NCBI GenBank assembly: GCA_028753945.1
Contig: JAPNXP010000002.1
Span: 5,766,001-5,830,000, forward strand
Direction of reading: 5' to 3'
From: Hexactinellida sp. DTS-2022
Lineage: Eukaryota > Porifera > Hexactinellida
DNA: 64,000 nt
In this document: in pieces, positions 6,055 to 56,890 of the stretch
Layout of the letters: each line of letters begins with the position of its first letter
Numbering within the stretch: position 1 is the stretch's first letter
Notes under the pieces: model-generated
What the model was told of the DNA's origin: nothing
Databases searched by the model: none
Seen by the model: only the letters and a program-made list of their open reading frames with translations
Position numbers and translations under genes: made by a program

Positions 6055-7543
6055 CAGTGCTTCTCAAACTTTTTCATGTCGCGGACCAATAATTTCGTCA
6101 TCACAATTACACGGACCTCGCGTATTTTCGCGCAGTCTCGAAGTTAGTAAAATTTGATTATTGTAATGTTTAACATTTATGATGCGAATACGTGGAAATT
6201 ATCAATTGTGGATAATCGACAGTAAATTATAAAGCGTTTCTAATTAATGTCAATCTAATATACACACCCATACCAAAAGTATTCAACAACCCAAAATTTC
6301 CATTGGAAATAGTATTTTAACCCTCGGCTGGCTTGGGGTAAGAGGTATAAATAGAAAAACCCCACTTTCACTTTCACTTTCAATTGAAAGTCAATTAACT
6401 TTCAGTATCAATTTTACATTCCTAGCCAGACGAGGGATATAGTCTAATATTCAAATTATATGAGATGTGGTCATTTTGATTGTAGAATCGTGTTCAACGC
6501 ATCCAATTAACCTATGTAGAGCTTTCAAATAAATATCATATTGATTATTTTGAAAATTAACATCCGGTGGCACCATGTACATTTATTCCAATTGCCAACA
6601 TGGTATAAGGCGGGAATAAGTGGTACATAGTGGCAATGGATGGTAATTTTCAACCTAATCAGTAACTAACAGAGGTGAAGGCTCCTGCAATGATTATTTC
6701 AAAAATGCGTAGAAAAGAATCTGACATAATTTTTCAAAGTCCATTTATTACGAATACAATGTAAAATTTTCTAGAAACACTGTACAGTCGAACCTTCCCT
6801 ATCCGGGCAGCCTCGTCCGGAGGGTGCCCGGATCTCGGAAATAACCATAAAATTTATTCCATAATCAACTAGAGTTTATGGCCTGATATCTCCAAAACTA
6901 TTGTCGACGGGGACTCTAGCCAGTTGCTCATCCTCCGTTCATCGAAACTTGGTATAACTATACCCAAGCAGTTCATTAATTTCGAAAATGAATTTTTTAT
7001 AAAGTAGCGAAATTTCCATATTGCCAAATCCAAACCAATATTTACTGCCCAGATAAGGGTGGTTTACTTTTAGTACCATGTTTGACATTCAAATTTGCAA
7101 AGATAAACTAAATTTGGGGCTAATAACCAAAAAAAGGCGACTTAATTTTAACTTATACAAAAATGTTCCCCGGTTGAAGGAGGTGTCTGGATCTTGGAGG
7201 TTTGACTGTATTGCTATTTTCTATGGAAATTAATACTTTTGGTAGGGGAGTGTATTGTGGAAGATAAATTATGTTTGAATTTCACGTTACTGTTTTATGT
7301 TTGCAGGATTGTTGAAATTATAGCAGCATTCTAGGAAGTAGATCATGTGATCATCATCTGAGAATTTTTGAAGAGTGAGGGAGATTTCGATATTATACCA
7401 AAAATTGTACAATGACAACAAATAATTGGAAATTGAAATCCATTAAATAAAATATTGAACAACTTTCATGATCTTTCTGCGGCCCAGTAACAATTTCCTC
7501 GCGACCCACTAATGGGTCGCGGACCACAGTTTGAGTACCACTG
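6055..7543 (+). mobile_element. hAT non-autonomous element with 8-bp TSD
   Basis: The terminal repeats are CAGTGCTTCTCAAAC and, inverted at the right end, CAGTGGTACTCAAAC, followed by GTCGCGGACC-like subterminal sequence at both ends. An exact 8-bp duplication TTGTAGTC flanks it (6047-6054, 7544-7551), diagnostic of hAT. There is no transposase ORF. A pogo-type element is nested inside. The repeated block, from 20665, begins within that nested element. Confidence 0.9.
6785..7208 (+). mobile_element. pogo/Tigger-type MITE nested in hAT
   Basis: The 424-bp element has ends CAGTCGAACCTTCCC and, inverted, CAGTCAAACCTCCAAGATCC, flanked by TA on both sides (6783-6784, 7209-7210). The TA duplication and CAGT terminus fit the Tc1/mariner-pogo group. 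It has no ORF, and it inserted after the hAT host element. Confidence 0.85.
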
Positions 7544-7720
7544 TTGTAGTCCACTTAATTATGTTTTAGATATGATAGCATCAAAACTATACCAGGGACA
7601 CGTAATTACCATCAATAGACTCCAATAAGTGCAAAGTTTATAGGAAGAAAGCGAATTCGTGACCAATTAGAATATACAATAACATATGTATTTAAATGAA
7701 ATCGTGTAATAAACTTCAAA

Positions 7721-7965
7721 TACCGTATTTACTCCAATAGTAGCCTAGGCGATTATTGTTTTTACTCCATTTTTCCACAAATAATTTTGAGCAATTTTCT
7801 AGAATATCACATTTTATTACAATTTAATTATGATAATCGGTTGATAATCGTATTGTGAGTTATATTAGATATAAATGTTTACTCCGGGTAGCAGTAATAC
7901 ATTTTTATTTGCTACTTTAGGGGGCGATTATTAGAATAGAGGCTACTATTCGAATAAATACGGTA
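7721..7965. mobile_element. 245-bp MITE, TIR TACCGTATTTA
   Basis: The terminal inverted repeats are about 25 bp with two mismatches: TACCGTATTTACTCCAATAG at the left, and TACCGTATTTATTCGAATAG read inward from the right. There is no ORF. The superfamily is not determined from sequence alone. Confidence 0.8.
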
Positions 7966-8059
7966 TTCCACACAGCTGCCCCACTTAACTATAGGTAATT
8001 ATGTCGCATGTATGTATGACAAAGATTGGTGTATTAGTGTGATTAAATAAGTCTGTGAG

Positions 8060-8167
8060 GAAGAAGGTGATATAAAAGTCAGCTTTATGAATCCAAATGG
8101 ACCAGGGCGTCCTGAAAATAGTTTATATTGGCCCTCAATTGAAGACTTTTATTATATCCTTAAATGA
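8060..8167 (+). pseudogene. Short coding remnant, FMxPNGP motif
   Basis: A 35-codon open stretch reads ...IKVSFMNPNGPG... then LYWPSIEDFYY and stops. A related motif (KFMHPNGPSKYF...DLCWIP) occurs at 59342-59512. I associate F-M-H-P-x-G-P followed by a W-P / E-D block with the C-terminal part of uncharacterised, transposon-associated invertebrate ORFs, but I cannot name the family. An in-frame stop lies just upstream, so this is a remnant. Confidence 0.45.
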
Positions 8168-8302
8168 TGTAATAGGCTATATGTCCACTCCCAAAACTTC
8201 TTCAAAACGTGTTAGCAATTCAAAAAAGCTAATTAATGATATTCAAATGTAGCAAGAGATTAAATTGTAAATCTAGAAACGTACGTATTCCATTTGGAAA
8301 TA

Positions 8303-8599
8303 CAGTACACCCTCGCTACTCCGAACAGGGAATCCAAAAAAAATTCGTATTTAAGAGGGTAAAATCATAAATATTTGTACGTATACTATATAATACATTG
8401 AATTTATACAAAAATAAGTATCAGATAAATATTAGGTAATATACTATATCATTTGTTGGATTAATTAAATAGAGTTGGTCGGATTATTGGGGTATCATTT
8501 TATAAATGCTATATAAAATGTATTACAATACTAGCCCGAACGAATTTACTAATCGGAAGAGATTTTAGTTGATTCGGAACTCTTCTGTTAGGATTACTG
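8303..8599 (+). mobile_element. pogo/Tigger-type MITE, 297 bp
   Basis: It begins CAGTACACCCTCGCTACTCC and ends ATTACTG, with flanking TA at 8301-8302 and 8600-8601. It has internal GGAAGAGATTTT and GTTCCGAA-type motifs. There is no ORF. A related left end is at 63101. From 8602 to 9145 I see only AT-rich sequence. Confidence 0.7.
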
Positions 8600-9145
8600 T
8601 ATATATGAATATTACATCAAATACAATAATCAAATCATGAATTATAAGCAATCTTAATTATTTGAATAATAATGTGAATAACAAATACATTGGTATTAAA
8701 GTAGGCCTAAATAACAGTGTGACAACGACTATTAGTATACGTGAGTTAGTTCACAGCACATTTGTTTAATCTATTGCATTCTTATTGAACATAGCAACAA
8801 TACTAATGGATTTAATTTAAATGTGTAGTTTATCGGAGGTCAAAGATACCACAAACTACAAATTTCTGATACAAATATCAATTGTATAATGGTGTTGGAA
8901 TGAGTGATAAACTGAAAATAATTATTTAAATATGAAATATTTATCAATATGATAGAAATAGAGTAAGGTTCTATCCAGTATTCTTTTTTTATATAGAACA
9001 TTAATTGGCAAAGGGATCTATTTTTGGGGGGGAGGTTTGTGTGTTTGTTTTGTTTTTTTCTAAGTATTTATGATAATCTAATAACCTATAGTGTAAGAGC
9101 GTTTTAGCCTACGGGTTACTAGTTAAACCTTTATTTTATTTTCAA

Positions 9146-9960
9146 AAACAGATTCGCAATATTATGTACTAATACCACAATAGTGGGATGATTTTGAAGT
9201 TTATAATAACAATCACACAGATTCGAAATACTATGTACTAATATCACAAAATGGGAATGAATTCGAAGGTTTAGAATAACAAACCAGTACAGATTCGCAA
9301 AATTATGTACTAACACCACTGAAGAGGAATGAATTCGGTAGTTTATAATAACAATCAGAACAGATTCGCAATATTATGTACTAATATACTACTAAAGGGA
9401 AAGAATTCGCATGTTTAATATATCAATCCGGCACCGATTCGCATTATTATCTACTAATACCCCAATAGTGGATTGAATTTGAAGTTTATAATAACAATCA
9501 GCACAGAATCGCATTATTATGTTCTAATATCACAAAAGGGGAATGAATTCGAAGGTTTAGAATAACAAACCAGTACAGATTCGCAATATTATTTACTAAT
9601 TCTACAATGGTAGAATGAATTTGAAGTTTATAATAACAATCATCACAAATTCGCTATATTTTGTAGGTATACAACAAAATGGAAATGAATTTGAAATTTA
9701 TAATAACTTCCAGCACAGACTCGCAATATTATGCACTAATACCGCAAAAGGGAAATGAATTCGAAAGTTTGGGATTTCAATCCTGTACAGATTCGAAATA
9801 TTCTGTATTAATACCACAAAAGGGGAATGAATTCGAAGGTTATAATAACAATCAGCACAGATTCGTATTATTATGTAGTAATTCCACAATAGTGGATAGA
9901 ATTTGAAGTTTTTAATAACAATCAGCACAGATTCGTAATGTTATGTAGTAACAGGCTGAA
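9146..9960 (+). repeat. Minisatellite, units of about 60-70 bp
   Basis: About a dozen degenerate tandem units carry CAGATTCGCAATATTATGTA, then AATACCACAA, GAATGAATTCGAAG and TATAATAACAATCA. The small ORFs here on both strands (for example 9679-9906) are products of the repeat. The array stops just before the Transib-like element. Confidence 0.85.
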
Positions 9961-9965
9961 AACAG

Positions 9966-10786
9966 CACAGTGGGCAAACAAGTGGAAATAGAGCATTTTT
10001 CGAGCGCCTCAGATTAACTCGATATTAGTGACATCGTTTTCAGCATACATGAAAACCTAAAAATCCAATTTATTGTGCTGAGAAACATTCGAGATCAAGA
10101 GTTATGTGTAATGAGATCATCATGTTACAACAATTCTAAAAAAAGCAACTTTTGTGGTTTCAGAATTGCAGTATCAAAGTCGTACAAAATTCAACAAATT
10201 ATATTATGTAGATGAAATATTCAAGTTAGCTTTATCATTTGGCATTGGCATTGTATGAAATAAATGTACATTAATGCATTTTAACTTCTTATATAGTCTA
10301 AAATTATAATACATTCCGACCAGAATTTTATGATTCGGACGCATTTGCTAATTTCCAATATTGTTCAAGAACTTTTGAGAGCAATCATGAGCAATTGGTT
10401 TTTACCTTTTAAATGAAAGATTATGATGATACCTTCAAATTAAAAAGTATTCTAGATGCGCGAAAGGGCGCGACAGGGGTCATCTAATGACTTTGAAACA
10501 TAATATATTAGGATTTTAACTAATTTTTAAAAATTATATCAAGTTCAAGAATTATAATCAATAATCATGGGTGAACAATAAATTTTTGTTAACGAACCTA
10601 AATATAATTTATGACTGATTTATCATTAATCGTCTAGAACTGCGCTTAGGAGACTACATATATTATTTTTGATATTGCCATTCGGTTTGCAGCTACCGAT
10701 AACCTATATGTCAATAATACTTCATTAGATTCTATCTAGCATAGTTTTTCCTATTTCCACTTACATCCCTGAATATGCCCACTGTG
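9966..10786 (+). mobile_element. Transib/RAG-like non-autonomous element with RSS-like ends
   Basis: Both ends begin with CACAGTGGGCA read inward, which contains the exact V(D)J heptamer CACAGTG. A 5-bp duplication AACAG flanks it (9961-9965, 10787-10791), as expected of Transib and ProtoRAG. A second 12-bp block, AAGTGGAAATAG, occurs at both ends but at different distances: AAATAG starts after 13 bp from the left heptamer (9973-9985) and 23 bp from the right heptamer (10757-10779). The 821 bp have no ORF, so a transposase would be needed in trans. The superfamily call is inference from the ends and the TSD. Confidence 0.65.
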
Positions 10787-11255
10787 AACAGGTCGATAAA
10801 ATAATTCAAATTTCAAGAAAATTCGGATTTAGACATTGTTTTGTACTGTCCGGAGTAGAATTTAAAATTTTATTAAGTTTTATTGAGCAATAATTTTTTT
10901 AGTGCAAAATATATACAATTTTTCTACAAAATTAGTAAAAATAAAATATATTTAATTTAAATTAAAAACCAAAATTTCTTAACCGGACAGACAACGTTAA
11001 ATAGAGTAAGGAACATTTCATAATTGAGGTTACTATTCAAAATCATAATTCAAGATAGTGAATTGTCGATAATTGGCTAGTATGGATCAGTATGGATCAG
11101 GATAGTAAAGAAATTCGAATAAGCTATAACCGTGGATATATGAATTCGCAACTTCCAATATTATGGATAGTTACTAGATAGTTATAGAGCAAATTAATGG
11201 CTATTTCAAATTTTTCAAATTCAATGTTTGATAATTCATTAGCGGTTTCCCTTAC

Positions 11256-11960
11256 GGTTAAATTACGGCAGATTCATGCAAAAAAACACATAAATTTCGT
11301 TTTGAAGTTAGGTATTTGATTTTCACATATATGATAGAAGACACTATAGCTATATCGAAACTGAAAACAAAATCTGATTATCTTTTATAAATTTTATTTT
11401 ATGGGGCATGCAGTTTAATTGTAATACAAAAGTCCCATAGGGGGATTTCTTCAGACTCAACCAGATAAGTGTGTGGTTTTCAAGATCATTATTATCCAAA
11501 GACATATTTTGTGTGATCTAACAGAGAGATCATCGTTATGGGCGGTTGGTGGGCGGTTTAGAATTTTGATAAAATGTACATTAAAAATATTGCGACGTTT
11601 TGGAACCAAAAAATGGATAAAAAGGTCATCTTTTTATGCGAAATTTGATTAAATGCTTGATAAAGAAAATTCCAAGTCATAATTCAAAAATGTAAACCGT
11701 ATACCAACTCCTTACGCTTATAATCTTTAAATATTGATTCTGATAACAAACATTGATGGCCGCATTGCCAAATTACCGCATAATATCGACCAACACTTTT
11801 GGAAATCGCCCTATGGGAGATTTGTATTAGCAAAATTTTGAAACCGACAAAAAATAAAAAGTATAATAGATAGGGACATTTTCTTTTTGGTTTATTGCTT
11901 TGTATCGTATAGGTATCTATTTCTCTCAATTACAATTTTCATTCACGTGCGGTAATTTAA
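11256..11960 (+). mobile_element. Family B TTAA-type MITE, about 0.7 kb
   Basis: It begins GGTTAAATTACGGCAGATTC and ends CACGTGCGGTAATTTAA. It contains the family core GATCATCGTTATGGGCGG at about 11530. Copies lie at 42338, 48695 and 56891. The 81-codon minus ORF at 11684-11929 is family body, not a gene. The flanking TTAA is not preserved here; it is clear at 42338 and 48695. Confidence 0.75.
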
Positions 11961-12393
11961 TACAAAAAATTAATTATTTGTGAAAATTTTGGTTGCAGTA
12001 ATTTTCTATATTGTTCATAAGATATCGCTATAATATATCAACAATCAAATTGAAAGCATTAACTTACAATCCTTAGAAGTTTCTATTCTGATGATACTAC
12101 ACTCAAAATAGGAATGTTATTTTTGTGTAATCATTATATGAATTCCATATTCTTATTGTAGTAACTAAGTTCTAATGTTCTCTGACGTTTGTTAATTGAT
12201 CTTTTGTAAGAAGTTATAATTATATCATTTTTGTAATAAGAACCAATTGACGTACTATTTTGTAATGCTACACCATATGACGTTGTATTATTTTTGCACA
12301 ATAAATATAATTTTAGTAACAAACAGATCAATTTCTTTATAAAAAGAATTCTAAATATATCTGTAAGATACTAATTATAGTTTTTTTGTTAGC

Positions 12394-12400
12394 TATAAAT
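12394..12400 (+). promoter_or_regulatory. TATA box candidate for the Mutator-like transposase
   Basis: TATAAAT lies about 175 bp upstream of the ATG at 12575, with no other obvious user. The spacing would allow a short 5' leader containing the 38-bp repeats. Confidence 0.35.
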
Positions 12401-12444
12401 AAAGTTTTAATCAAGAAGAATTATCTTCGACTCTTCGCTCAATT

Positions 12445-12569
12445 GAATATCAATTCAATTTCTTCTCTTCATCGCATTTATTGAATATCATTTCAATTTC
12501 AACTCTTCATCGATTTTATTGAATATCAATTCAATTTCAACTCTTCATCGCTTTTATTGAATATCATTA
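12445..12569 (+). repeat. 38-bp tandem repeat just upstream of the transposase ATG
   Basis: About 3.3 units of 38 bp (GAATATCAATTCAATTTC, then TCTTCATCG, then TTTTATT) end six bases before the ATG. The array would lie in the 5' leader of the transposase transcript. Confidence 0.8.
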
Positions 12570-12574
12570 CAATA

Positions 12575-15090
12575 ATGGACGATTCCTATGAATTTGCGTA
12601 TTCTCCCAGCATTCACTCAGATAGTGAGCACAACCAGGAACTGGACAAATCATTCATGTCCACTCGCTCCTGTTCCCAAATGAGCATCTCCTCACAGGGG
12701 TCCGCTAAGGATGAATCGGAAGGGACTCGAAAGCATAGGGAAAGACGTGGAAGTATGAGTAAGCGATTTCAACTCTCAACAGCACGCAAATCAACCAAGC
12801 CCGCCTCCAATAAAATAGCCTCGACAACTAAATTACCAATCCAATTTGATGCAACTCCTGTGCCGGACACAAACATCCTCATGAATTTGGTAACGATGCA
12901 ATCGTTTCTCAACTTAATGGCCCGCTGTACTTTTTGTGAGAAAGGCCTCTTGAATATTCTCGTGACAGGACGCTCATATGGTACAGCATCCTTCATTTCA
13001 ATTACTTGTAACAATTGCGACTCAACGAAAGGTTTTTGGAGTTCAGGCAGCCGCACCCGGTGTACAATGACTGTTGGGGATAATGCGAAAAAGACAAGGA
13101 GCCAACTAATCTACGCCTCTGTTTTATCTGGACGAATTATGGGGGTTGGATGGGGAAAGCATCACCTATATCATTCCTTTTTGAACGTGTCCGGGCCAAT
13201 TAACATAGGAAACTTCAATTTGGTTCAAGCAGATCTTCTCCTGGTGGCTAAAGCGGTTGCTGAAGACAGCATCTTGATGGCTGTCAATCAGTTGCGACCC
13301 ATCCACTCTGTCGATTCGACTTCCAAGTACGTGAAAGTAATAGTCACATTTGATGGAGCCAGGGCCAGATTAAGGCGGGGGCTGATGGGGCACCAGCCCC
13401 AGGCCCATCTTGAAAATAGGCCCACAGCCCCAGGCCCATCTTGAAAATAGGCCCAATATTTGTATCAATTTCTCAATTTATCAGAACTCCAATTTCGTGG
13501 AGGGGACTTCTCACGATACTGCCTCTCATCGGAAATCTCTGCTGAAACAGGAAAGGTCCTCTCCTATGGCGTAGCCTGCAACAGCTGTGCATACAGCAGC
13601 AAGATGGACAACCAACAGCGCGACTCTAAAATCTCTCCCGAAGAACACGAATCGAGGATGGCAATCCACAAGCCGGTTTGCAGTGCGGAGTATGCGGACT
13701 TTTCCTCTGTACAACTTGAATCAGCGATAGCCCCTAAAGTTATTGGAGACGCTTTGAAACGTGGGGTAATCTTTTCAGCAATCGTGTCGGATGGGGACAA
13801 TAAGACCCATGAAGTTCTCGCAAAGGCTGGCCTCTATTACGATATTAGCGGTGCTCCAACTATCGAACGCTTCGAGTGTATAGCTGACGTGGCCAAACGG
13901 ATGAAAACGAATCTCCATAAGCGACAAGATAAGGCCCTGAAGACTGCACGCGCTGATAAGGCTGCTCTTGTCCGCTATTTTTCAAGGCAGGGCCTCAGCA
14001 AGAAGCAAATCAGCAAGAAAGTCGACCCTCGGTTCTAGTGGATGATTCAGCGAACAAGCAAAGGGAGGGACTCCTGGGAAAGCAAGCCTGCGGAGGAGAT
14101 TCGGCACCTTTCTCTAGCTCTTTGTGGACAAATTGCTTCATACTACCGATTGGCTGTGCAGCGAAACGCAGGAGATGTGCCTTCCATACTCGCGGCAATC
14201 AAAGCTATACCACTACATCTCTCTGCGACGGACGAAAATGCTGACCAGAATCATTAGTATTGTCCCTTCTCTTCAGACTCATGGTGTAGATATCAACAGG
14301 CCATGTTCTTCTCCAAAAGCCTCCCCTCTCATCCTAACTACCTTGGAGCTGCCGCCACTTCTCTCATTCAAGATTTATTTCATGAATTTGGTTATGACTC
14401 CGAAGAATTCGTCACGAAGATTTCTCAGGGCCTTCTTCTAACCACAATGAGGCCATCCACTCGCTGTTATTTAATATGGTCCATAAGACGGATGCGGTTG
14501 GAATGGATGTTATGGAGCTCGGCTCTGCGCTGGTTGTGATACGTTACAACGATGGCTTCGCCGGGATCGCGAAACTTTGCAATAAAGTCGGCATTGACGT
14601 CACCACTCGTTTGGAGAATGCTTTTCTAACTCTTGATAACTTGAGGGCTACTCAAACCCTGATTATAATTAGGGAACAGCGTAAGAGGTATCAGAAGAAG
14701 CAACGGAGGGGAAGGAAGACATCAAAGCAGCTCGCGAAAGGTACCGCTCCCTATTGTTCAGGCGAATATTCGGGGGCCAGATCGAAATTTGGTTGCGACT
14801 ATTCATCGGGCGAAGAAATGGAGCCGGGTTCCCCTCCAGACTCCCCAACTGCCACTCGACCCGCCACTCCAGTCGCGACTTCTTCAACCGACTCTTCTAT
14901 GGAGCCATGCAATATCTGTGGGAGAACAAAAGTTAACGGCATAGTTGGTATGGCAATTGGGCTCCAGATTATCGACACCGAAGCCTTTTGGGTCCAGTGC
15001 AACTCTTGCGATCTTTGGTTCCACTACCTCTGCCTCAACATTGACGATGCGGAAGACTTAGGGGATGAATACTATTGTCCGTCTTGCTAA
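12575..15090 (+). pseudogene. Mutator-like transposase with C-terminal PHD finger, broken
   Basis: This is a DDE transposase of the invertebrate Mutator-like family, here disabled. The start is the ATG at 12575 (MDDSYEFAY). There is a serine-rich basic N-terminus, then a C-x2-C / C-x2-C zinc motif (residues 118-121 and 145-148). The catalytic core has a first Asp in VTFDGA (13352), a second in VSDGDNKT (13790), and the Glu in SNHNEAIHS (14449). A C4HC3 PHD finger ends the protein (CNIC, CNSC, WFHYLC, YYCPSC). Lesions: a short insertion with stops after the first Asp (13360 to about 13495), in-frame UAG at 14036 and 14255, and a frameshift near 14430. The remaining reading frame is well kept, so the damage is recent. 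No terminal inverted repeats were found. Confidence 0.85.
13360..13495 (+). mobile_element. Short hAT-like insertion in the transposase core
   Basis: The insert starts CAGGGCCAGATTAAGGCGGG, similar to the CAGTGCCGGATTACCGCA end of the hAT element at 58425. It includes a 31-bp direct duplication (AGCCCCAGGCCCATCTTG and on) and brings a UGA and a UAG into frame. The right boundary is approximate and no clean TSD was identified. Confidence 0.5.
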
Positions 15091-15146
15091 TTTAGATTAT
15101 TGTGTTAGTATTAGAGTATTCTGTTAGCTTGTTTCCTTGAATACAC

Positions 15147-15152
15147 AATAAA
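15147..15152 (+). terminator. Polyadenylation signal AATAAA
   Basis: AATAAA lies 57 bp after the transposase stop codon at 15090, a normal distance for a metazoan 3' UTR. Confidence 0.5.
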
Positions 15153-15478
15153 TATGCTTGAGAAACTGTTTCGGACTCTTGGGGTTCAAATTGTATTTTC
15201 GTGCAGCTCCCACATCAATTGTGGAGGGCGCATGCTGTTTACCCTTTGAAATTGGGATTGGTTTCTTTAGTCCTAAGTTAGTTTAGGGTATCATTAGTAA
15301 GTAATACCCACTTGCAATACTTTGCACTTCGCTTGGGGGACATTGGATTGGATTTATTGATTAATTTAAGAAAAATCGCCGATTTTACTGAAGCTGGACC
15401 GACAGACTTTCACTTCCTGGAAAATTATTGAATAGAACATCATTGTTTTAGTGCTTTAATACATACTAGTATACTCAA

Positions 15479-15651
15479 GGTTGGGGGCGTCAGAGAGCTT
15501 TTAGCGCTATTGTTCATTGAACTCCTATGGTATGCTTGATTAATAGTGATTCACCATAAAATTGCTGACTTTCATGAAAATTCCAGCATGTCATCATTGC
15601 AGTATAGAAAGTTAACACTATATTACTAACCGAAGTATGACGCCCCCAACC
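15479..15651. mobile_element. 173-bp MITE with TIR GGTTGGGGGCGTCA
   Basis: Perfect 14-bp inverted repeats are at 15479-15492 and 15638-15651. The palindrome TACTAGTA is present outside both ends (15464-15471 and 15652-15659), possibly an 8-bp target duplication with seven extra bases on the left. It has no ORF. Confidence 0.7.
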
Positions 15652-16090
15652 TACTAGTAGGTAGAAGCTTTATAGGTATTCATGGTGCTTTGATAACAAC
15701 CCATTTCTTCCATGTAACTTCGAATATAGCGAAATTTCCATTACAATTGTATTATCATTACCAAAAAGTTAGTTCCATATTCACATACTTGGCTATAATA
15801 AGAAAAGTATAAGAGCTAGAGTGTCAAACTTAGATTCAAATGATAGCTAAGATTAAGGGTTAAGATATGCAATAGTAATATAGCATATTCATTTTTAAAT
15901 TTCCAGAAGGAACTTAGCCACATACATATACATATTGTATAACAGGGTTGTAATGCAAAATCAGTGTAAATTTACTACAAAAACACGCTTTATTTTTGAT
16001 GCAATTTACAAAAACTATATTCAAATTAATGGCTAGAGGGAAGAATTATTAGTTAGCATGTAAATATACAGACACAGTTTAGAGAGGATA

Positions 16091-16330
16091 CATGCAATAC
16101 AAAAGCTATCTAACCAGTACCGCTATTACCTAGCTGATAATACTCTAGCTTGTCGTGAATTCCAGATAGCAGGTACTCATATTGCGTAACTATTGTAAAT
16201 ACAAGATTAAACTATATAAACCAAACACATACAATACAATAGCTATACCATACCAGTACAGCTATAACCTAGCTGATAATACTCTCCTAATCCTAAGCTG
16301 GTGGTGAATTCCAGTTAGCAGATACTCGCA
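16091..16330 (+). repeat. Direct duplication of about 95 bp
   Basis: 16091-16180 and 16228-16330 are imperfect direct copies sharing ACCTAGCTGATAATACTCT and GTGAATTCCAG. The 77-codon minus ORF at 16262 is not convincing. From 16331 to 18160 I see no gene I can support, only AT-rich sequence and a GC-rich patch at 17158-17232 (GCGGGCC motifs). Confidence 0.6.
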
Positions 16331-18167
16331 ACCTTTTGAAACTCGAGGCAAATTTTCTATAACGCACACCTGTGCCGGCCATAATAGAGAATGGCAAAAA
16401 TACCATAGTGTATCACTTATTTGGTGGTTTATGTTGTCAAAAAGGTGGATAACCTCAAAGTAACAAATTAGGTACAATATAATGATAGTTTTCAAATTAA
16501 ACGTAAACGCCCAAATTAGTAGACTAGGCTATGAATAGAGATGGAATATTTCATAGAAATTCGATTGCTTGTTTCGGAAACTTTGCTCCCGAGGAAATTC
16601 GTAGCGTGGGAGCAAAATATTCATGGAAATTTGGTCCTTCTATGGAAGATTGGTCGAACTGAGTTATTTTTCTTTAGTTAAGCAATAATTAATATTGTAG
16701 AATCAACTTGATGGAAAATGAAAATTGTGAGACTCAAGATGATTGAGAACTCTATATTTTGAAAACTCGATTGTTGTGTATTTATTTGTTTGTCCTGATT
16801 GTATTAATTTATGTAGTAATCGCATCTGTTTGGGTGGAGACAAACTTCCAAATGTTATAGTTAATTGGCAAGAATTTTCGGACGCTGAAGACGAATTCCG
16901 CGTATATACTAAAGCACTAATTCCTAGTTCTAATTAAGTTAATTGTATAGAAAATAAGTTAACAGATTAATTTTAATTCCAAATGAACGTAGGCTAGCTT
17001 TCAAAGGGTTTAAATATTCGATGGGTAATATTTGTTATCCGTTTTAACTGTATTTTTTCAGAAACTCTGTTTCATACAATGAGTTCCTAATTATCTTCTT
17101 GACCTGAAATTTATACAAAACATATTGGAATTATATATATACAGTTTATAATACAAGTTGCGGGCCTCTTGCAGACCAAAGATATTCATGCGGGATTTTT
17201 GCGGGCCGAATATTACAGCACCGGGCGGGTTTAATTATTATTGCCACTTCCCAAATTCTTCTTTATTGCATATTTCATTTTCGCCCTCACTTTTCACCTC
17301 AAAACATGTGATTGGTACTGTCTCATAAGGTTATTCGCTTTGGATGGATGGGGACTAGTTAAAGATCCATATCATTTTTTTGCAAATTTTTGACTCCAAA
17401 ATGTCTGCCCTTTGTTCGTTATGTATCGACTCATCATTTATTTCTGGTTAATTTATTTCATTGCCTACACATGTTGGTTATTTTCCTTGAGAATCGGTTG
17501 CGGTTGCCAATAGCATGTTTAGAATAATTCCTATCTCACTTGCAATGAATTTTTAATTTAGTCCTTCTAAACTTATGGATTAGATTTTGTGGGCTCCCCA
17601 CAAGTGCTGACAGACTCTTCTGATAATGTTTGTTAGCCATTATTTGGTGAAATTCCTGCATTTGAATTTTGTATTTAGTTATAATATTTGTTGAATATAA
17701 TATACTAGCAGAAACCAATTTTTGCAGCCTACGGTAGGTTGGCAACTATTTTACATCTCTCTCATATCGAAAAACTCTTCACTCCTGAAATACTGCACAT
17801 TACTTGGGTGTGATGAGTTATACGGGACTATTTATACAAATAGGTCCCAACAACAATCTCGAACTGCTTTGAATAACTCTATTCTCATTCTAGACAAGTC
17901 GTAGTAATGGTACATCCATCTGAAAGTGAAGATATACTTCAGTCCCACATTCCGAAGTCAACTAGGCATATCAAGGAGCATCTGCCAGCAATGCTGTGAA
18001 AGAAAAGGTGTGAACATAACCTGTTTGAGAAGGTGTGAACATAACCTGTTAGAAATTCAATCAATTCAGTTTTTCGAACTTGAGATAAAGGAAAACTTCC
18101 CTCTTTTTCAGTATCACCTGGAGCCGAGTCTATTATTAAATAGAAAAGTGATTTTAAGGTAACTTAC

Positions 18168-18356
18168 TTCAATAATATCCTTCATTAATTGGACTTTCTT
18201 AAATTGCAATGCAATTTCAGCATTGCGCCCTCTTTTCCGCTTCCTGGAAAGCTCATGGGTGGATTGTTCTACTTCAACGATTTCTGTCATATCAGGGACA
18301 GGTAATTCATCCTCAGGGACTATGCAATTAAATCTAAGGTTTTCCATCTTGTCCAT
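18168..18356 (-). CDS. Candidate first coding exon, lysine/arginine-rich protein
   Basis: The minus strand has an ATG with a favourable context (A at -3, G at +4), then 63 codons without a stop, ending at a consensus splice donor GAA|GTAAGT (donor at 18162-18167). The predicted segment is acidic (PEDELPVPDMTEIVEVEQ) and then carries SRKRKRGR, a likely monopartite nuclear localisation signal, ending QLMKDIIE. I do not recognise the family. A pyrimidine-rich acceptor lies about 170 bp downstream, but in phase 0 the next exon would soon hit a stop, so gene structure is unresolved. The promoter side runs into a family E hairpin terminus at 18401. It could be a functional host gene start or a captured fragment. 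Confidence 0.45.
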
Positions 18357-18400
18357 AGTATTTTACATTATTGGTTTAAAACTTGCTTTAATATATTTAT

Positions 18401-18484
18401 ACGATCCCTTCAGTCTCGGTCGCTTTGCGACAAATCGATGCTACGCACCTCAAATTAACGGCCGCTATACGGCCTTACTCCACT
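18401..18484 (-). mobile_element. Family E hairpin terminus
   Basis: GTCGC-TTT-GCGAC is a perfect small hairpin. It is followed by GATGC-TAC-GCACC and GGCCGCTATACGGCC, both with slightly damaged stems. The same module is at 19901-19980, on the other side of the GC-rich minisatellite, in the same orientation. Confidence 0.6.
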
Positions 18485-18599
18485 CTAAACAATTGATGAT
18501 AGTGTTATAAAACATCCTTTCCTACCAGTACCATACTTTTAACTTGTTTACCTATAAATACCAATACATGCCGTACTCTGGGTGACCTAGATCAATATA

Positions 18600-18800
18600 G
18601 TTCTAGAAATTATTATGTTGTTGATGGGAAATGGATTCATGATTATGATATTCTAACAAAATTCAGATAATTATAATATTTTTTACAATAAATTCCCAAT
18701 AAAACTGTTGATGTCGAGCAGCCGCAAACTGGTTTTTGAAATCTGTAACCGTTAACAAGATACTATTAGCAACGGTTACCCGATTTCAGACTTAAGTTTA
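18600..18800 (+). repeat. Remnant of the centre of the foldback element
   Basis: The segment (GGGAAATGGATTCATGATTA, then TTCCCAATAAAACT, then GTAACCGTTAAC and CAACGGTTACC) is homologous to the loop region of the foldback element at 60430-60600. The long arms are absent here. Confidence 0.5.
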
Positions 18801-18885
18801 AAATGTAGAATATGACAGAATTATAAAATTTCTATTAAATATATTTTAGGCACTCTTCATACGCAATGCAGGTTTAAAAGAAAAG

Positions 18886-19500
18886 AGCGAGCGGTTGGGC
18901 ACCGGGAGAGGGCCCTTCCCCCGCGACCGGTTGGGCTACCGGGAGAGGAGCCCCCCCGCGACCGGTTGGGCTACCGGGAGAGGAGCCCCCCCGCGACTGG
19001 TTGGGCTGCCTCGAGAGGGCCACCTCCCGCGACCGGTTGGGCTGCCTGGAGAGAGCCATCCCCCGCGACCGGTTGGGCTACCGGGAGAGGGCCCCCCCCG
19101 CGACCGGTTGGGCTACCGGGAGAGCCTCCCCGCGACCGGTTGGGCTGCTGGAAGAGGCCCCCCCGCGACCGGTTGGGTTACCGGGAGAGGCCCTCCCCGC
19201 GACCGGTTGGGTTACCGGGAGAGCCCCCCCGCGACCGGTTGGGCTGCCGGGAGAGGCCCTCCCGCGACCGGTTAGGCTACCGGGAGAGGAGCCCCCCCCG
19301 CGACCGATTGGGCTACAGGGAGAGGGGCCCCCCCGCGAGTGGTTGGGCTACCGGGAGAGGATCCCCCCGCGACCGGTTGGACTACCGGGAGAGGAGCCCC
19401 CCGCGACAGGTTGGGCTACCGGGACAGGCTACCCCCCGCGACCGGTTGGACTACCGGGAGAGGGCCCCCCCGCGAGCGGTTGGGCTACCGGAAGAGGAGA
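18886..19500 (+). repeat. GC-rich minisatellite, 18 units of about 34 bp
   Basis: Eighteen units of GCGACCGGTTGGGCTACCGG followed by GAGAGG and a C-run vary from about 31 to 42 bp, mostly by C-run length. It is extremely GC- and CpG-rich in an AT-rich setting. Long overlapping ORFs (330 and 253 codons from 18966 and 19001) arise because stops are rare in this composition. Unit lengths are not multiples of three, so the reading frame changes from unit to unit. I do not call a protein. Confidence 0.9.
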
Positions 19501-19898
19501 CCCCCGACCCCGGGTATCCCCACATCGACCAATCCCTGCGCGACCGAGTGCCCCCCTCGCGACCAGATGCCCCCCGGCGATGGGCTGCGAGCCATATAAT
19601 AACGCACCGCCTACGATCGCCGCTATGCGAACCCACGCCGCCCCGCGAGGACATATTGTCCACTGCCATCCCCTATCGTCCATTATTATCGGGGCTAATC
19701 ACACCAGCATTAGTAAACGCTCCACCCTGGCTGCTAGTCGCCGCCCCCCCACCTCAATATAGAAACCCCGCCTTTCTTGACCCGCTCCTCAGTATCATTC
19801 ACACTATGGATGGCACCGTCCCCCCCAAACCCGCCCCCTCTAGTATAGCTAGTATAGTTAGAATAGCTTGTATACTAATAGCTAGCAACTATATTATA
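19501..19898. other. C-rich unique segment after the minisatellite
   Basis: The segment is strongly C-over-G skewed on the plus strand, with CCCCCC runs, and decays toward AT-rich TAGTATAGCTAGTATAG at its end. No protein or RNA family was recognised. It sits between the minisatellite and a family E terminus, so it may be element cargo. Confidence 0.5.
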
Positions 19899-19900
19899 AT

Positions 19901-20248
19901 ACGAACCCTTCGGTCTCGGTCGTTTTGCAACAGATCGGTGCTACGCACCTCAAGTTAACGGCCGCTGTGCGGCTTTACTCCTCAAAGCGTGATTTTGAAT
20001 TTTCATTAATTTGTTTACCTATTTTGTGTAAACAACAACAGCAAATATTCATATTAGATAATTTTAAACGCGAAAATCGTGTTCGGCATACTTGTTTACC
20101 TATAATACCCGTTGAAAGCAAACTTCTAGGTCGTTTTTGAATTTTCAATAATTAGTTTACCTATTTTGTGTAAACAATAACAATAAATATTAATATTATA
20201 AATTTATAAATGCGAAATTCGTGTTCAGCATACTTGTTAACCTATAAT
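19901..20248 (-). mobile_element. Family E element, cut by contig end
   Basis: The hairpin terminus at 19901-19980 (GGTGC-TAC-GCACC and a GGCCGC stem with one wobble) is followed by two body units of about 140 bp. The match with 33755-34102 stops at 20248 in the second unit. The equivalent region after the gap continues to a normal end at 34383. Confidence 0.65.
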
Positions 20249-20564: not shown

Positions 20565-20664
20565 NNNNNNNNNNNNNNNNNNNNNNNNNNNNNNNNNNNN
20601 NNNNNNNNNNNNNNNNNNNNNNNNNNNNNNNNNNNNNNNNNNNNNNNNNNNNNNNNNNNNNNNN
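20565..20664. other. Assembly gap, exactly 100 N
   Basis: The fixed 100-base run is a conventional scaffold gap of unknown size, not an estimated length. Apparent ORFs across it are meaningless. Confidence 0.98.
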
Positions 20665-21397
20665 CCTCGTCCGGAGGGTGCCCGGATCTCGGAAATAACC
20701 ATAAAATTTATTCCATAATCAACTAGAGTTTATGGCCTGATATCTCCAAAACTATTGTCGACGGGGACTCTAGCCAGTTGCTCATCCTCCGTTCATCGAA
20801 ACTTGGTATAACTATACCCAAGCAGTTCATTAATTTCGAAAATGAATTTTTTATAAAGTAGCGAAATTTCCATATTGCCAAATCCAAACCAATATTTACT
20901 GCCCAGATAAGGGTGGTTTACTTTTAGTACCATGTTTGACATTCAAATTTGCAAAGATAAACTAAATTTGGGGCTAATAACCAAAAAAAGGCGACTTAAT
21001 TTTAACTTATACAAAAATGTTCCCCGGTTGAAGGAGGTGTCTGGATCTTGGAGGTTTGACTGTATTGCTATTTTCTATGGAAATTAATACTTTTGGTAGG
21101 GGAGTGTATTGTGGAAGATAAATTATGTTTGAATTTCACGTTACTGTTTTATGTTTGCAGGATTGTTGAAATTATAGCAGCATTCTAGGAAGTAGATCAT
21201 GTGATCATCATCTGAGAATTTTTGAAGAGTGAGGGAGATTTCGATATTATACCAAAAATTGTACAATGACAACAAATAATTGGAAATTGAAATCCATTAA
21301 ATAAAATATTGAACAACTTTCATGATCTTTCTGCGGCCCAGTAACAATTTCCTCGCGACCCACTAATGGGTCGCGGACCACAGTTTGAGTACCACTG
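20665..21397 (+). mobile_element. hAT element with nested pogo MITE, truncated by gap
   Basis: This is the duplicate of 6811-7543. The nested pogo element ends at 21062 and the hAT right end is at 21397, followed by its TTGTAGTC duplication copy. Confidence 0.9.
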
Positions 21398-21574
21398 TTG
21401 TAGTCCACTTAATTATGTTTTAGATATGATAGCATCAAAACTATACCAGGGACACGTAATTACCATCAATAGACTCCAATAAGTGCAAAGTTTATAGGAA
21501 GAAAGCGAATTCGTGACCAATTAGAATATACAATAACATATGTATTTAAATGAAATCGTGTAATAAACTTCAAA

Positions 21575-21819
21575 TACCGTATTTACTCCAATAGTAGCCT
21601 AGGCGATTATTGTTTTTACTCCATTTTTCCACAAATAATTTTGAGCAATTTTCTAGAATATCACATTTTATTACAATTTAATTATGATAATCGGTTGATA
21701 ATCGTATTGTGAGTTATATTAGATATAAATGTTTACTCCGGGTAGCAGTAATACATTTTTATTTGCTACTTTAGGGGGCGATTATTAGAATAGAGGCTAC
21801 TATTCGAATAAATACGGTA
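21575..21819. mobile_element. 245-bp MITE, second copy
   Basis: Duplicate of 7721-7965 with the same TACCGTATTTA terminal repeats. Confidence 0.8.
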
Positions 21820-21913
21820 TTCCACACAGCTGCCCCACTTAACTATAGGTAATTATGTCGCATGTATGTATGACAAAGATTGGTGTATTAGTGTGATTAA
21901 ATAAGTCTGTGAG

Positions 21914-22021
21914 GAAGAAGGTGATATAAAAGTCAGCTTTATGAATCCAAATGGACCAGGGCGTCCTGAAAATAGTTTATATTGGCCCTCAATTGAAGAC
22001 TTTTATTATATCCTTAAATGA
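21914..22021 (+). pseudogene. FMxPNGP coding remnant, second copy
   Basis: Duplicate of 8060-8167. Confidence 0.45.
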
Positions 22022-22156
22022 TGTAATAGGCTATATGTCCACTCCCAAAACTTCTTCAAAACGTGTTAGCAATTCAAAAAAGCTAATTAATGATATTCAA
22101 ATGTAGCAAGAGATTAAATTGTAAATCTAGAAACGTACGTATTCCATTTGGAAATA

Positions 22157-22453
22157 CAGTACACCCTCGCTACTCCGAACAGGGAATCCAAAAAAAATTC
22201 GTATTTAAGAGGGTAAAATCATAAATATTTGTACGTATACTATATAATACATTGAATTTATACAAAAATAAGTATCAGATAAATATTAGGTAATATACTA
22301 TATCATTTGTTGGATTAATTAAATAGAGTTGGTCGGATTATTGGGGTATCATTTTATAAATGCTATATAAAATGTATTACAATACTAGCCCGAACGAATT
22401 TACTAATCGGAAGAGATTTTAGTTGATTCGGAACTCTTCTGTTAGGATTACTG
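22157..22453 (+). mobile_element. pogo/Tigger-type MITE, second copy
   Basis: Duplicate of 8303-8599. Confidence 0.7.
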
Positions 22454-22999
22454 TATATATGAATATTACATCAAATACAATAATCAAATCATGAATTATA
22501 AGCAATCTTAATTATTTGAATAATAATGTGAATAACAAATACATTGGTATTAAAGTAGGCCTAAATAACAGTGTGACAACGACTATTAGTATACGTGAGT
22601 TAGTTCACAGCACATTTGTTTAATCTATTGCATTCTTATTGAACATAGCAACAATACTAATGGATTTAATTTAAATGTGTAGTTTATCGGAGGTCAAAGA
22701 TACCACAAACTACAAATTTCTGATACAAATATCAATTGTATAATGGTGTTGGAATGAGTGATAAACTGAAAATAATTATTTAAATATGAAATATTTATCA
22801 ATATGATAGAAATAGAGTAAGGTTCTATCCAGTATTCTTTTTTTATATAGAACATTAATTGGCAAAGGGATCTATTTTTGGGGGGGAGGTTTGTGTGTTT
22901 GTTTTGTTTTTTTCTAAGTATTTATGATAATCTAATAACCTATAGTGTAAGAGCGTTTTAGCCTACGGGTTACTAGTTAAACCTTTATTTTATTTTCAA

Positions 23000-23814
23000 A
23001 AACAGATTCGCAATATTATGTACTAATACCACAATAGTGGGATGATTTTGAAGTTTATAATAACAATCACACAGATTCGAAATACTATGTACTAATATCA
23101 CAAAATGGGAATGAATTCGAAGGTTTAGAATAACAAACCAGTACAGATTCGCAAAATTATGTACTAACACCACTGAAGAGGAATGAATTCGGTAGTTTAT
23201 AATAACAATCAGAACAGATTCGCAATATTATGTACTAATATACTACTAAAGGGAAAGAATTCGCATGTTTAATATATCAATCCGGCACCGATTCGCATTA
23301 TTATCTACTAATACCCCAATAGTGGATTGAATTTGAAGTTTATAATAACAATCAGCACAGAATCGCATTATTATGTTCTAATATCACAAAAGGGGAATGA
23401 ATTCGAAGGTTTAGAATAACAAACCAGTACAGATTCGCAATATTATTTACTAATTCTACAATGGTAGAATGAATTTGAAGTTTATAATAACAATCATCAC
23501 AAATTCGCTATATTTTGTAGGTATACAACAAAATGGAAATGAATTTGAAATTTATAATAACTTCCAGCACAGACTCGCAATATTATGCACTAATACCGCA
23601 AAAGGGAAATGAATTCGAAAGTTTGGGATTTCAATCCTGTACAGATTCGAAATATTCTGTATTAATACCACAAAAGGGGAATGAATTCGAAGGTTATAAT
23701 AACAATCAGCACAGATTCGTATTATTATGTAGTAATTCCACAATAGTGGATAGAATTTGAAGTTTTTAATAACAATCAGCACAGATTCGTAATGTTATGT
23801 AGTAACAGGCTGAA
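23000..23814 (+). repeat. Minisatellite, second copy
   Basis: Duplicate of 9146-9960 with the same unit order. Confidence 0.85.
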
Positions 23815-23819
23815 AACAG

Positions 23820-24640
23820 CACAGTGGGCAAACAAGTGGAAATAGAGCATTTTTCGAGCGCCTCAGATTAACTCGATATTAGTGACATCGTTTTCAGCAT
23901 ACATGAAAACCTAAAAATCCAATTTATTGTGCTGAGAAACATTCGAGATCAAGAGTTATGTGTAATGAGATCATCATGTTACAACAATTCTAAAAAAAGC
24001 AACTTTTGTGGTTTCAGAATTGCAGTATCAAAGTCGTACAAAATTCAACAAATTATATTATGTAGATGAAATATTCAAGTTAGCTTTATCATTTGGCATT
24101 GGCATTGTATGAAATAAATGTACATTAATGCATTTTAACTTCTTATATAGTCTAAAATTATAATACATTCCGACCAGAATTTTATGATTCGGACGCATTT
24201 GCTAATTTCCAATATTGTTCAAGAACTTTTGAGAGCAATCATGAGCAATTGGTTTTTACCTTTTAAATGAAAGATTATGATGATACCTTCAAATTAAAAA
24301 GTATTCTAGATGCGCGAAAGGGCGCGACAGGGGTCATCTAATGACTTTGAAACATAATATATTAGGATTTTAACTAATTTTTAAAAATTATATCAAGTTC
24401 AAGAATTATAATCAATAATCATGGGTGAACAATAAATTTTTGTTAACGAACCTAAATATAATTTATGACTGATTTATCATTAATCGTCTAGAACTGCGCT
24501 TAGGAGACTACATATATTATTTTTGATATTGCCATTCGGTTTGCAGCTACCGATAACCTATATGTCAATAATACTTCATTAGATTCTATCTAGCATAGTT
24601 TTTCCTATTTCCACTTACATCCCTGAATATGCCCACTGTG
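23820..24640 (+). mobile_element. Transib/RAG-like element, second copy
   Basis: Duplicate of 9966-10786, including the CACAGTG ends, the 13/23 spacing and the AACAG flanks. Confidence 0.65.
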
Positions 24641-25109
24641 AACAGGTCGATAAAATAATTCAAATTTCAAGAAAATTCGGATTTAGACATTGTTTTGTAC
24701 TGTCCGGAGTAGAATTTAAAATTTTATTAAGTTTTATTGAGCAATAATTTTTTTAGTGCAAAATATATACAATTTTTCTACAAAATTAGTAAAAATAAAA
24801 TATATTTAATTTAAATTAAAAACCAAAATTTCTTAACCGGACAGACAACGTTAAATAGAGTAAGGAACATTTCATAATTGAGGTTACTATTCAAAATCAT
24901 AATTCAAGATAGTGAATTGTCGATAATTGGCTAGTATGGATCAGTATGGATCAGGATAGTAAAGAAATTCGAATAAGCTATAACCGTGGATATATGAATT
25001 CGCAACTTCCAATATTATGGATAGTTACTAGATAGTTATAGAGCAAATTAATGGCTATTTCAAATTTTTCAAATTCAATGTTTGATAATTCATTAGCGGT
25101 TTCCCTTAC

Positions 25110-25814
25110 GGTTAAATTACGGCAGATTCATGCAAAAAAACACATAAATTTCGTTTTGAAGTTAGGTATTTGATTTTCACATATATGATAGAAGACACTA
25201 TAGCTATATCGAAACTGAAAACAAAATCTGATTATCTTTTATAAATTTTATTTTATGGGGCATGCAGTTTAATTGTAATACAAAAGTCCCATAGGGGGAT
25301 TTCTTCAGACTCAACCAGATAAGTGTGTGGTTTTCAAGATCATTATTATCCAAAGACATATTTTGTGTGATCTAACAGAGAGATCATCGTTATGGGCGGT
25401 TGGTGGGCGGTTTAGAATTTTGATAAAATGTACATTAAAAATATTGCGACGTTTTGGAACCAAAAAATGGATAAAAAGGTCATCTTTTTATGCGAAATTT
25501 GATTAAATGCTTGATAAAGAAAATTCCAAGTCATAATTCAAAAATGTAAACCGTATACCAACTCCTTACGCTTATAATCTTTAAATATTGATTCTGATAA
25601 CAAACATTGATGGCCGCATTGCCAAATTACCGCATAATATCGACCAACACTTTTGGAAATCGCCCTATGGGAGATTTGTATTAGCAAAATTTTGAAACCG
25701 ACAAAAAATAAAAAGTATAATAGATAGGGACATTTTCTTTTTGGTTTATTGCTTTGTATCGTATAGGTATCTATTTCTCTCAATTACAATTTTCATTCAC
25801 GTGCGGTAATTTAA
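25110..25814 (+). mobile_element. Family B MITE, second copy
   Basis: Duplicate of 11256-11960. Confidence 0.75.
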
Positions 25815-26428
25815 TACAAAAAATTAATTATTTGTGAAAATTTTGGTTGCAGTAATTTTCTATATTGTTCATAAGATATCGCTATAATATATCAACAATC
25901 AAATTGAAAGCATTAACTTACAATCCTTAGAAGTTTCTATTCTGATGATACTACACTCAAAATAGGAATGTTATTTTTGTGTAATCATTATATGAATTCC
26001 ATATTCTTATTGTAGTAACTAAGTTCTAATGTTCTCTGACGTTTGTTAATTGATCTTTTGTAAGAAGTTATAATTATATCATTTTTGTAATAAGAACCAA
26101 TTGACGTACTATTTTGTAATGCTACACCATATGACGTTGTATTATTTTTGCACAATAAATATAATTTTAGTAACAAACAGATCAATTTCTTTATAAAAAG
26201 AATTCTAAATATATCTGTAAGATACTAATTATAGTTTTTTTGTTAGCTATAAATAAAGTTTTAATCAAGAAGAATTATCTTCGACTCTTCGCTCAATTGA
26301 ATATCAATTCAATTTCTTCTCTTCATCGCATTTATTGAATATCATTTCAATTTCAACTCTTCATCGATTTTATTGAATATCAATTCAATTTCAACTCTTC
26401 ATCGCTTTTATTGAATATCATTACAATA

Positions 26429-28944: not shown

Positions 28945-29332
28945 TTTAGATTATTGTGTTAGTATTAGAGTATTCTGTTAGCTTGTTTCCTTGAATACAC
29001 AATAAATATGCTTGAGAAACTGTTTCGGACTCTTGGGGTTCAAATTGTATTTTCGTGCAGCTCCCACATCAATTGTGGAGGGCGCATGCTGTTTACCCTT
29101 TGAAATTGGGATTGGTTTCTTTAGTCCTAAGTTAGTTTAGGGTATCATTAGTAAGTAATACCCACTTGCAATACTTTGCACTTCGCTTGGGGGACATTGG
29201 ATTGGATTTATTGATTAATTTAAGAAAAATCGCCGATTTTACTGAAGCTGGACCGACAGACTTTCACTTCCTGGAAAATTATTGAATAGAACATCATTGT
29301 TTTAGTGCTTTAATACATACTAGTATACTCAA

Positions 29333-29505
29333 GGTTGGGGGCGTCAGAGAGCTTTTAGCGCTATTGTTCATTGAACTCCTATGGTATGCTTGATTAATAG
29401 TGATTCACCATAAAATTGCTGACTTTCATGAAAATTCCAGCATGTCATCATTGCAGTATAGAAAGTTAACACTATATTACTAACCGAAGTATGACGCCCC
29501 CAACC
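29333..29505. mobile_element. 173-bp MITE, second copy
   Basis: Duplicate of 15479-15651. Confidence 0.7.
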
Positions 29506-32210: not shown

Positions 32211-32254
32211 AGTATTTTACATTATTGGTTTAAAACTTGCTTTAATATATTTAT

Positions 32255-56889: not shown

Positions 56890-56890
56890 T

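What the first reader, a model, noticed from the sequence alone, without database searches (positions are those of the whole stretch)
9966..10786. Non-autonomous element with V(D)J-like ends: CACAGTG heptamers and 13/23 spacing
Seen: both ends start CACAGTGGGCA, an exact 5-bp duplication AACAG flanks the element, and a common block ending AAATAG sits after a 13-bp spacer at the left end and a 23-bp spacer at the right end. Known: RAG recombination signals are CACAGTG plus a 12- or 23-bp spacer plus a nonamer; Transib and ProtoRAG elements start CACWRTG and make 5-bp duplications. Inference: this is a Transib/RAG-family passenger whose two ends differ by about one helical turn, an arrangement resembling the 12/23 rule. 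The second block is not a good match to the RSS nonamer.
Basis: partly seen in the sequence, partly recalled or inferred. Interest (0 to 1): 0.85.

Follow-up and report, generated by a model that had tools for sequence, protein, structure and literature searches.

The report
Small cut-and-paste transposon, probably Transib-type
This is a short, gene-less jumping-DNA insertion whose ends resemble those of the Transib transposons related to our antibody-gene recombinase; the match is real but fits an already described kind of element, and one copy cannot prove the family or a 12/23-style rule.

Summary
Window 9966-10786 is an 821-bp, gene-less insertion with perfect 11-bp inverted ends (CACAGTGGGCA), a second perfect 12-bp inverted block (AAGTGGAAATAG) and an exact 5-bp target duplication AACAG. 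About 2 in 10,000 simulated windows would show this combination. The "13/23" figure is post hoc: the conserved block starts 7 and 17 bp after the heptamer, so only a 10-bp offset is measured, and the RSS nonamer match there is at chance level. The second window copy (23820-24640) lies in a 13.4-kb, 100% identical duplication starting at a 100-N gap, probably an assembly artefact, so there is one independent copy. No host genome is held; no relative was found. Best reading: a non-autonomous cut-and-paste element moved in trans by a Transib-type transposase (0.55). Main rival: a hAT5-type element, since a hAT group with 5-bp duplications exists and the AAGT in the second block resembles a hAT BED-domain site. 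Transib families with 12/23-like asymmetric ends are already published (PMC8355894): a new member of a known kind.

The parts
9961..9965 (+). left target-site duplication AACAG
   Evidence: exact match to 10787-10791; no match at 2-4 or 6-10 bp
9966..10786 (+). non-autonomous DNA transposon, 821 bp, 30.6% GC, longest stop-free stretch 65 aa
9966..9976 (+). left terminal inverted repeat CACAGTGGGCA (heptamer CACAGTG at 9966-9972)
   Evidence: 11 of 11 identical to the right end
9977..9979 (+). left spacer AAC between the two conserved blocks (3 bp)
   Evidence: best single 10-bp deletion of the right spacer matches it at 1 of 3 bases
9980..9991 (+). second conserved end block AAGTGGAAATAG, left end
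   Evidence: 12 of 12 identical to 10751-10762 inverted
10751..10762 (-). second conserved end block AAGTGGAAATAG, right end
10763..10775 (-). right spacer TATTCAGGGATGT (13 bp)
10776..10786 (-). right terminal inverted repeat CACAGTGGGCA (heptamer at 10780-10786)
10787..10791 (+). right target-site duplication AACAG
23820..24640 (+). identical second copy of the element, inside a 13,438-bp 100% identical duplication next to a gap; probably an assembly artefact

Best explanation
A non-autonomous cut-and-paste DNA transposon (MITE-like) of the Transib type. Shown: inverted ends made of a terminal block CACAGTGGGCA and a subterminal block AAGTGGAAATAG, an exact 5-bp target duplication, and no coding capacity. 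Inferred: a Transib transposase encoded elsewhere in the genome binds the two blocks at each end, cuts beside CAC (Hztransib leaves hairpins on the flanking DNA), and inserts the element with 5-bp staggered cuts. The two blocks are perfectly kept while the sequence between and beyond them differs, as expected if both are transposase contacts; their spacing differs by 10 bp, about one helical turn, so the second block would face the same side of the helix at both ends.
For: CAC...GTG ends, a CACAGTG heptamer and an exact 5-bp duplication. CMCT elements share CA..TG ends in most cases and 2-5 bp duplications (PMC12730594, passages). Hopper and transib2 have a modal 5-bp duplication (PMC3276498, passages) and Hztransib a 5-bp GCTCG duplication (PMC1852546, passages). 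Transib families with 12/23-like asymmetric ends are reported, including N1-N3 of Anopheles gambiae (PMC8355894, legend and passages). 23 of 23 bases of the two blocks are identical; the 3-bp left spacer is matched at 1 of 3 bases by the best single 10-bp deletion of the right spacer, and the next 50 bp agree at 20 of 50, with no control run for that figure.
Against: Only one independent copy; no transposase, genome or relatives available. Pfam on 59 of 73 window ORFs gave no RAG1/Transib hit at E 0.01. The duplication AACAG is not GC-rich (2 of 5), unlike the reported GC bias of Transib, ProtoRAG and RAG. Most Transib families are said to have symmetric ends. hAT5 elements also make 5-bp duplications. 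The AAA at positions 8-10 of protostome RAG-like ends is absent: the left end has AAA at 11-13 and the right end none there.
Confidence: 0.55

Rival explanations
1. A non-autonomous hAT5-type element. A hAT transposase with BED zinc fingers would bind the subterminal AAGTGG block and cut at the short terminal repeats; the hAT5 group makes 5-bp instead of 8-bp duplications.
For: hAT5 is described as a hAT group with 5-bp duplications inside a lineage holding Blackjack and other animal hATs (PMC12730594, passages). The Hermes BED domain binds 5'-AAGT followed by AT-rich DNA, in a bound stretch plotted from A15 to T23 of the left end (PMC10368747, passages); the left end here has AAGT at position 15 and the right at 25. 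Subterminal repeats arranged differently at the two ends are reported for Hermes. That GTGGGCAAAC resembles many hAT ends, and that the Hermes left end reads AACAAGTGG in this register, is recalled; searches for these letters in print gave nothing of use.
Against: No 8-bp duplication. The ends begin CAC rather than the CAG usual for hATs (recalled). Hermes has five AAG(T/C) motifs in the first 55 bp of both ends and Tol2 five AAGT in the first 50 bp; here there is 1 per 55-bp end, against a background of 0.47 (AAGT) or 0.74 (AAG(T/C)). The AAGT sits at 15 and 25, so the register fits one end only.
Confidence: 0.25
2. A member of another or undescribed CMC-like lineage (EnSpm, Chapaev, Mirage or a new one) or another superfamily that happens to make a 5-bp duplication here.
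For: CMCT members share CA..TG ends with 2-5 bp duplications; one copy cannot fix the modal duplication length.
Against: EnSpm with CAC..GTG ends makes 3 bp; Chapaev 4 bp and Mirage 2 bp are recalled; the duplication here is exactly 5.
Confidence: 0.17
3. Not a transposon: a chance pairing of short inverted and direct repeats.
For: An 11-bp inverted pair with a 5-bp duplication alone arises 0.265 times per simulated window, and the real window without the second copy has 3. With duplications of 5-8 bp, 100-4000 bp apart, the real window has 34 such pairs (33 without the second copy; simulated 0-2), most of them inside two regions of long inverted arms.
Against: The additional 12-bp inverted block within the next 49 bp of both ends has probability 0.0006; this element is not part of longer inverted arms.
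Confidence: 0.03

Closest known systems
Transib families with asymmetric ends (Transib2, N1, N2, N3 of Anopheles gambiae; Transib5 of Drosophila melanogaster)
   Same: Heptamer-like CAC ends and unequal spacing of two blocks at the two ends; read from the Fig. 2 legend and passages of PMC8355894. That N marks non-autonomous families is recalled.
   Different: Those are reported with nonamer-like blocks at 12 or 23 +/- 1 bp, some identical to canonical RSS elements; here the second block is not a nonamer and its start lies 7/17 bp from the heptamer.
Hztransib
   Same: 5-bp duplication, inverted ends (PMC1852546); similarity of its ends to the RSS heptamer.
   Different: 3518 bp and coding (489 aa), GC-rich duplication GCTCG; ends described as symmetric with little or no nonamer similarity.
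ProtoRAG of amphioxus
   Same: CAC heptamer, two conserved blocks per end, unequal 27/31 spacing, 5-bp duplication (PMC8289069).
   Different: Encodes RAG1L/RAG2L; second block GCCATCTTG; longer spacers.
hAT5 / Hermes-type hAT ends
   Same: hAT5: 5-bp duplication. Hermes: subterminal AAGT sites, unequal ends.
   Different: Hermes makes 8-bp duplications and has five AAG(T/C) motifs in the first 55 bp of each end; this element has one per end.

Membership tests
Transib | ends begin 5'-CAC with a CACWRTG-like heptamer | tested here: met
Transib | 5-bp target-site duplication | tested here: met
   AACAG exact, only length 5 of 2-10 matches; one insertion only
Transib | GC-rich target preference | tested here: inconclusive
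   AACAG is 2 of 5 GC; one site; bias reported
Transib | matching ends on a Transib transposase gene | not testable with these tools
   no genome held; none seen in the window by Pfam on 59 of 73 ORFs of at least 70 aa
Transib | multiple copies with the same ends | not testable with these tools
   one independent copy; the second is in a duplication at a gap
V(D)J recombination signal (12/23 RSS) | nonamer ACAAAAACC-like block at 12 and 23 bp | tested here: not met
   5/9 (spacers 11-13, left) and 3/9 (spacers 22-24, right) at best, reached by 17% and 72% of random sites; 6/9 only at spacers 27-28 of the right end
V(D)J recombination signal (12/23 RSS) | spacer lengths 12 and 23 | tested here: inconclusive
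   conserved block starts at 7 and 17; 13/23 only if measured to AAATAG; difference 10, not 11
hAT (typical) | 8-bp target-site duplication | tested here: not met
hAT5 | 5-bp target-site duplication | tested here: met
   group described
hAT (incl. hAT5) | sets of subterminal repeats near the ends | tested here: inconclusive
   1 AAGT per 55-bp end, background 0.47: not met for the Hermes motif; the hAT5 motif is unknown to me
hAT5 | matching ends on a hAT transposase gene | not testable with these tools
   no genome held
EnSpm/CACTA | 3-bp duplication with CAC..GTG ends | tested here: not met
   ends fit, duplication is 5 bp (definition)

The most novel reading that the evidence does not exclude
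A Transib passenger whose two ends obey a conserved, functional one-helical-turn asymmetry built on a non-RSS second block: a 12/23-like pairing rule in a transposon, reached with a different second-site sequence.
Probability: 0.08. Interest if true: 0.65.

Novelty: new member of a known kind. Interest (0 to 1): 0.25.

Why it matters
If the 10-bp offset were conserved across copies and required for pairing of the ends, it would help ask whether the 12/23 rule predates RAG2. As it stands it adds one probable non-autonomous Transib-type insertion to a kind already described with asymmetric ends.

Tried and rejected
More copies: the own genome is not held. End patterns in viral contigs gave 0 stretches in both scans. 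Distant blastn against phages gave no match; the plasmid and E. coli collections were not searched. One scan of genome contigs gave 4 stretches in 4 bacterial MAGs, against 6.5 expected by chance; blastn of the whole element against these 4 loci gave only short matches, best E 0.006 over 22 bp, so they are rejected as relatives.

Transposase in the window: Pfam on 7 ORFs and on 59 of the 73 stop-free stretches of at least 70 aa without N that do not lie wholly in the second duplicated copy. The 14 left out lie in the GC-rich 35-bp (7) and the about 114-bp (7) tandem repeats; one of them was scanned. Found at E 0.01: Mutator-like transposase (2 of 59), PHD finger (1), a weak NPB13-like repeat (1, E 0.0003) and a weak DUF7792 (1, E 0.0075); no RAG1/Transib and no hAT. 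That Pfam holds a RAG1 model is recalled, and I did not check whether it would find a Transib. ORF 39448-40089(-) looks hAT-like to me from memory, but Pfam (only an E 0.27 match to another family), solved structures and viral contigs do not support that. Host identity: the Mutator ORF and a repeat-end pattern found nothing in viral contigs; no tRNA, no Rfam family. The host stays unknown.

Other end pairs of this type in the window: of all CACNRTG...CAYNGTG pairs 150-5000 bp apart with an exact 5-bp duplication, only this element and its duplicate were found. Folding the strand as DNA gave z = -2.0 (0 of 20 shuffles folded as well), in keeping with the inverted ends; not pursued.

Literature: 10 searches. 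Searches returned 0 papers. The listings, which looked for end letters, showed unrelated papers (20 of 44 and 15 of 101 listed), and the 20 of 430 papers listed hold CACAGTGG 0 times. No listing showed this element in print, but Repbase is not searchable here. Fifteen papers were opened, each by passages only; PMC5753468, PMC4411706, PMC3212995, PMC12230796, PMC12220107 and PMC3143072 gave nothing that the argument rests on. The 2005 paper that compares RSSs with Transib ends (PMC1131882) is not held.

Full report
What is there. Window 9966-10786 is an 821-bp, AT-rich (30.6% GC) stretch with no coding capacity (longest stop-free stretch 65 aa). Its ends read CACAGTGGGCA-AAC-AAGTGGAAATAG (left) and, on the other strand, CACAGTGGGCA-TATTCAGGGATGT-AAGTGGAAATAG (right). 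The terminal 11 bp and the internal 12 bp are identical between ends, and AACAG is repeated exactly on both sides (9961-9965, 10787-10791). No other duplication length from 2 to 10 matches.

Is it more than chance? In sequence simulated with the window's dinucleotide frequencies, an exact 11-bp inverted pair 150-5000 bp apart with an exact 5-bp flanking duplication appeared 0.265 times per window (200 simulations; the window itself, second copy left out, has 3 such pairs). Real DNA is richer in such pairs than simulated DNA: with duplications of 5-8 bp the window has 33 (second copy left out) against 0-2 in 20 simulations, most of them inside long inverted arms elsewhere. This element is not part of such arms. 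Two random 49-bp stretches share a 12-mer with frequency 0.0006 (400,000 draws). The product is about 1.6e-4 per window, so this is very probably a transposon insertion. A search for heptamer-like pairs with a 5-bp duplication found only this element and its duplicate; 1.7% of 300 simulated windows have any.

One copy, not two. The window holds an identical second copy at 23820-24640, but it lies inside a 13,438-bp stretch (20665-34102) 100% identical to 6811-20248, starting at the first base after a 100-N gap. Perfect identity including its tandem arrays suggests, by inference, that two overlapping contigs were not merged; the second copy says nothing about transposition.

The 12/23 reading. 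The block identical between the ends is longer and starts 7 and 17 bp after the heptamer. The only measurement that does not depend on that choice is the 10-bp difference. The RSS nonamer (ACAAAAACC, PMC8289069) is not present at those distances: the best matches near spacers 12 and 23 (11-13 left, 22-24 right) are 5/9 and 3/9, which 17% and 72% of random sites reach. The best match in the first 60 bp of either end is 6/9, at spacers 27 and 28 of the right end. A single 10-bp deletion does not turn the right spacer into the left one (1 of 3 bases at best). So two perfectly kept blocks are separated by unrelated spacers. That fits two sites contacted by a transposase, but one pair of ends cannot show that the offset itself matters, and most Transib families are said to have symmetric ends.

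Which family? For Transib: CAC ends, a CACAGTG heptamer and a 5-bp duplication. The CMCT group shares CA..TG ends in most cases with 2-5 bp duplications (PMC12730594, passages). Drosophila hopper and transib2 show 5-bp duplications at 532 of 533 and 7 of 7 sites (PMC3276498, passages), and Hztransib has one too (PMC1852546, passages). Against: the duplication is not GC-rich (2 of 5), while Transib and RAG prefer GC, and no transposase is at hand. For hAT5: a hAT group with 5-bp duplications exists. The left-end AAGT at position 15 matches the motif, and by inference and recall the register, of the Hermes BED-binding site (AAGT followed by AT-rich DNA; bound stretch plotted from A15 to T23; PMC10368747, passages). 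Against: one AAGT per end, where Hermes has five AAG(T/C) and Tol2 five AAGT motifs in 50-55 bp, the right-end AAGT at 25, and CAC rather than CAG ends (recalled). I put Transib at 0.55, hAT5 at 0.25, another lineage at 0.17 and chance at 0.03.

How it most likely works. Shown: anatomy, duplication, no genes. Inferred: mobilised in trans by a transposase encoded elsewhere, which binds both blocks at each end, cuts beside CAC and inserts with a 5-bp stagger. Hztransib is reported to leave hairpins on the flanking DNA (PMC6941560, passages), as Hermes does (PMC4763223, passages), so hairpin chemistry would not separate the two readings. The 10-bp offset keeps the second block on about the same face of the helix; whether it has a function is open.

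Novelty. PMC8355894 (legend and passages read) lists Transib members with 12/23 asymmetric ends, naming Transib5 of D. melanogaster and Transib2, N1, N2 and N3 of A. gambiae. A Transib with unequal block spacing is therefore a known kind. What could be new, if other copies confirm it, is an offset built on a second block that is not nonamer-like.

Limits. The host is unknown and its genome is not held. Pattern scans of viral contigs gave 0 stretches, and the scan of genome contigs gave 4, against 6.5 expected by chance. Pfam was run on 59 of 73 ORFs together. Papers were read by passages only.

Noticed in passing
6811-20248 and 20665-34102; gap 20565-20664: 13,438 bp repeated at 100% identity, the second copy starting right after a 100-N gap: probable false duplication from unmerged contigs.
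   Followed up: partly
12485-15090 (duplicate 26339-28944): Broken Mutator-like transposase (PF20700) in two ORFs followed by an ORF with a PHD finger.
   Followed up: partly
59743-61245: 1503-bp fold-back element with CAGGGACTTC ends, arms of about 633 bp 96.8% alike and a 7-bp flanking duplication CATACGA.
   Followed up: partly
51010-51765: 756-bp inverted-end element beginning TATACGGCTGTGTATG with a short flanking direct repeat TATAG.
   Followed up: no
613-2322, 40393-41898, 44405-45978, 53475-55048: Dispersed family in both orientations, best pair 97.9% identical; 4 of the 8 ends shown carry TTAAGGCCAAACTATACT and 3 more a variant. Tandem repeats of about 114 bp (self-alignment offset) at 52009-53478 and 55041-56890 abut the two ends of the copy at 53475-55048.
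   Followed up: no
9148-9951: 70-bp tandem array (11.4 copies, 75% matches) ending 14 bp left of the element.
   Followed up: no
18887-19505: GC-rich 35-bp tandem repeat (18 copies) giving long open frames with repetitive peptides.
   Followed up: no
39448-40089 (-): 213-aa ORF that looks hAT-transposase-like from memory; no Pfam, PDB or viral contigs support.
   Followed up: partly
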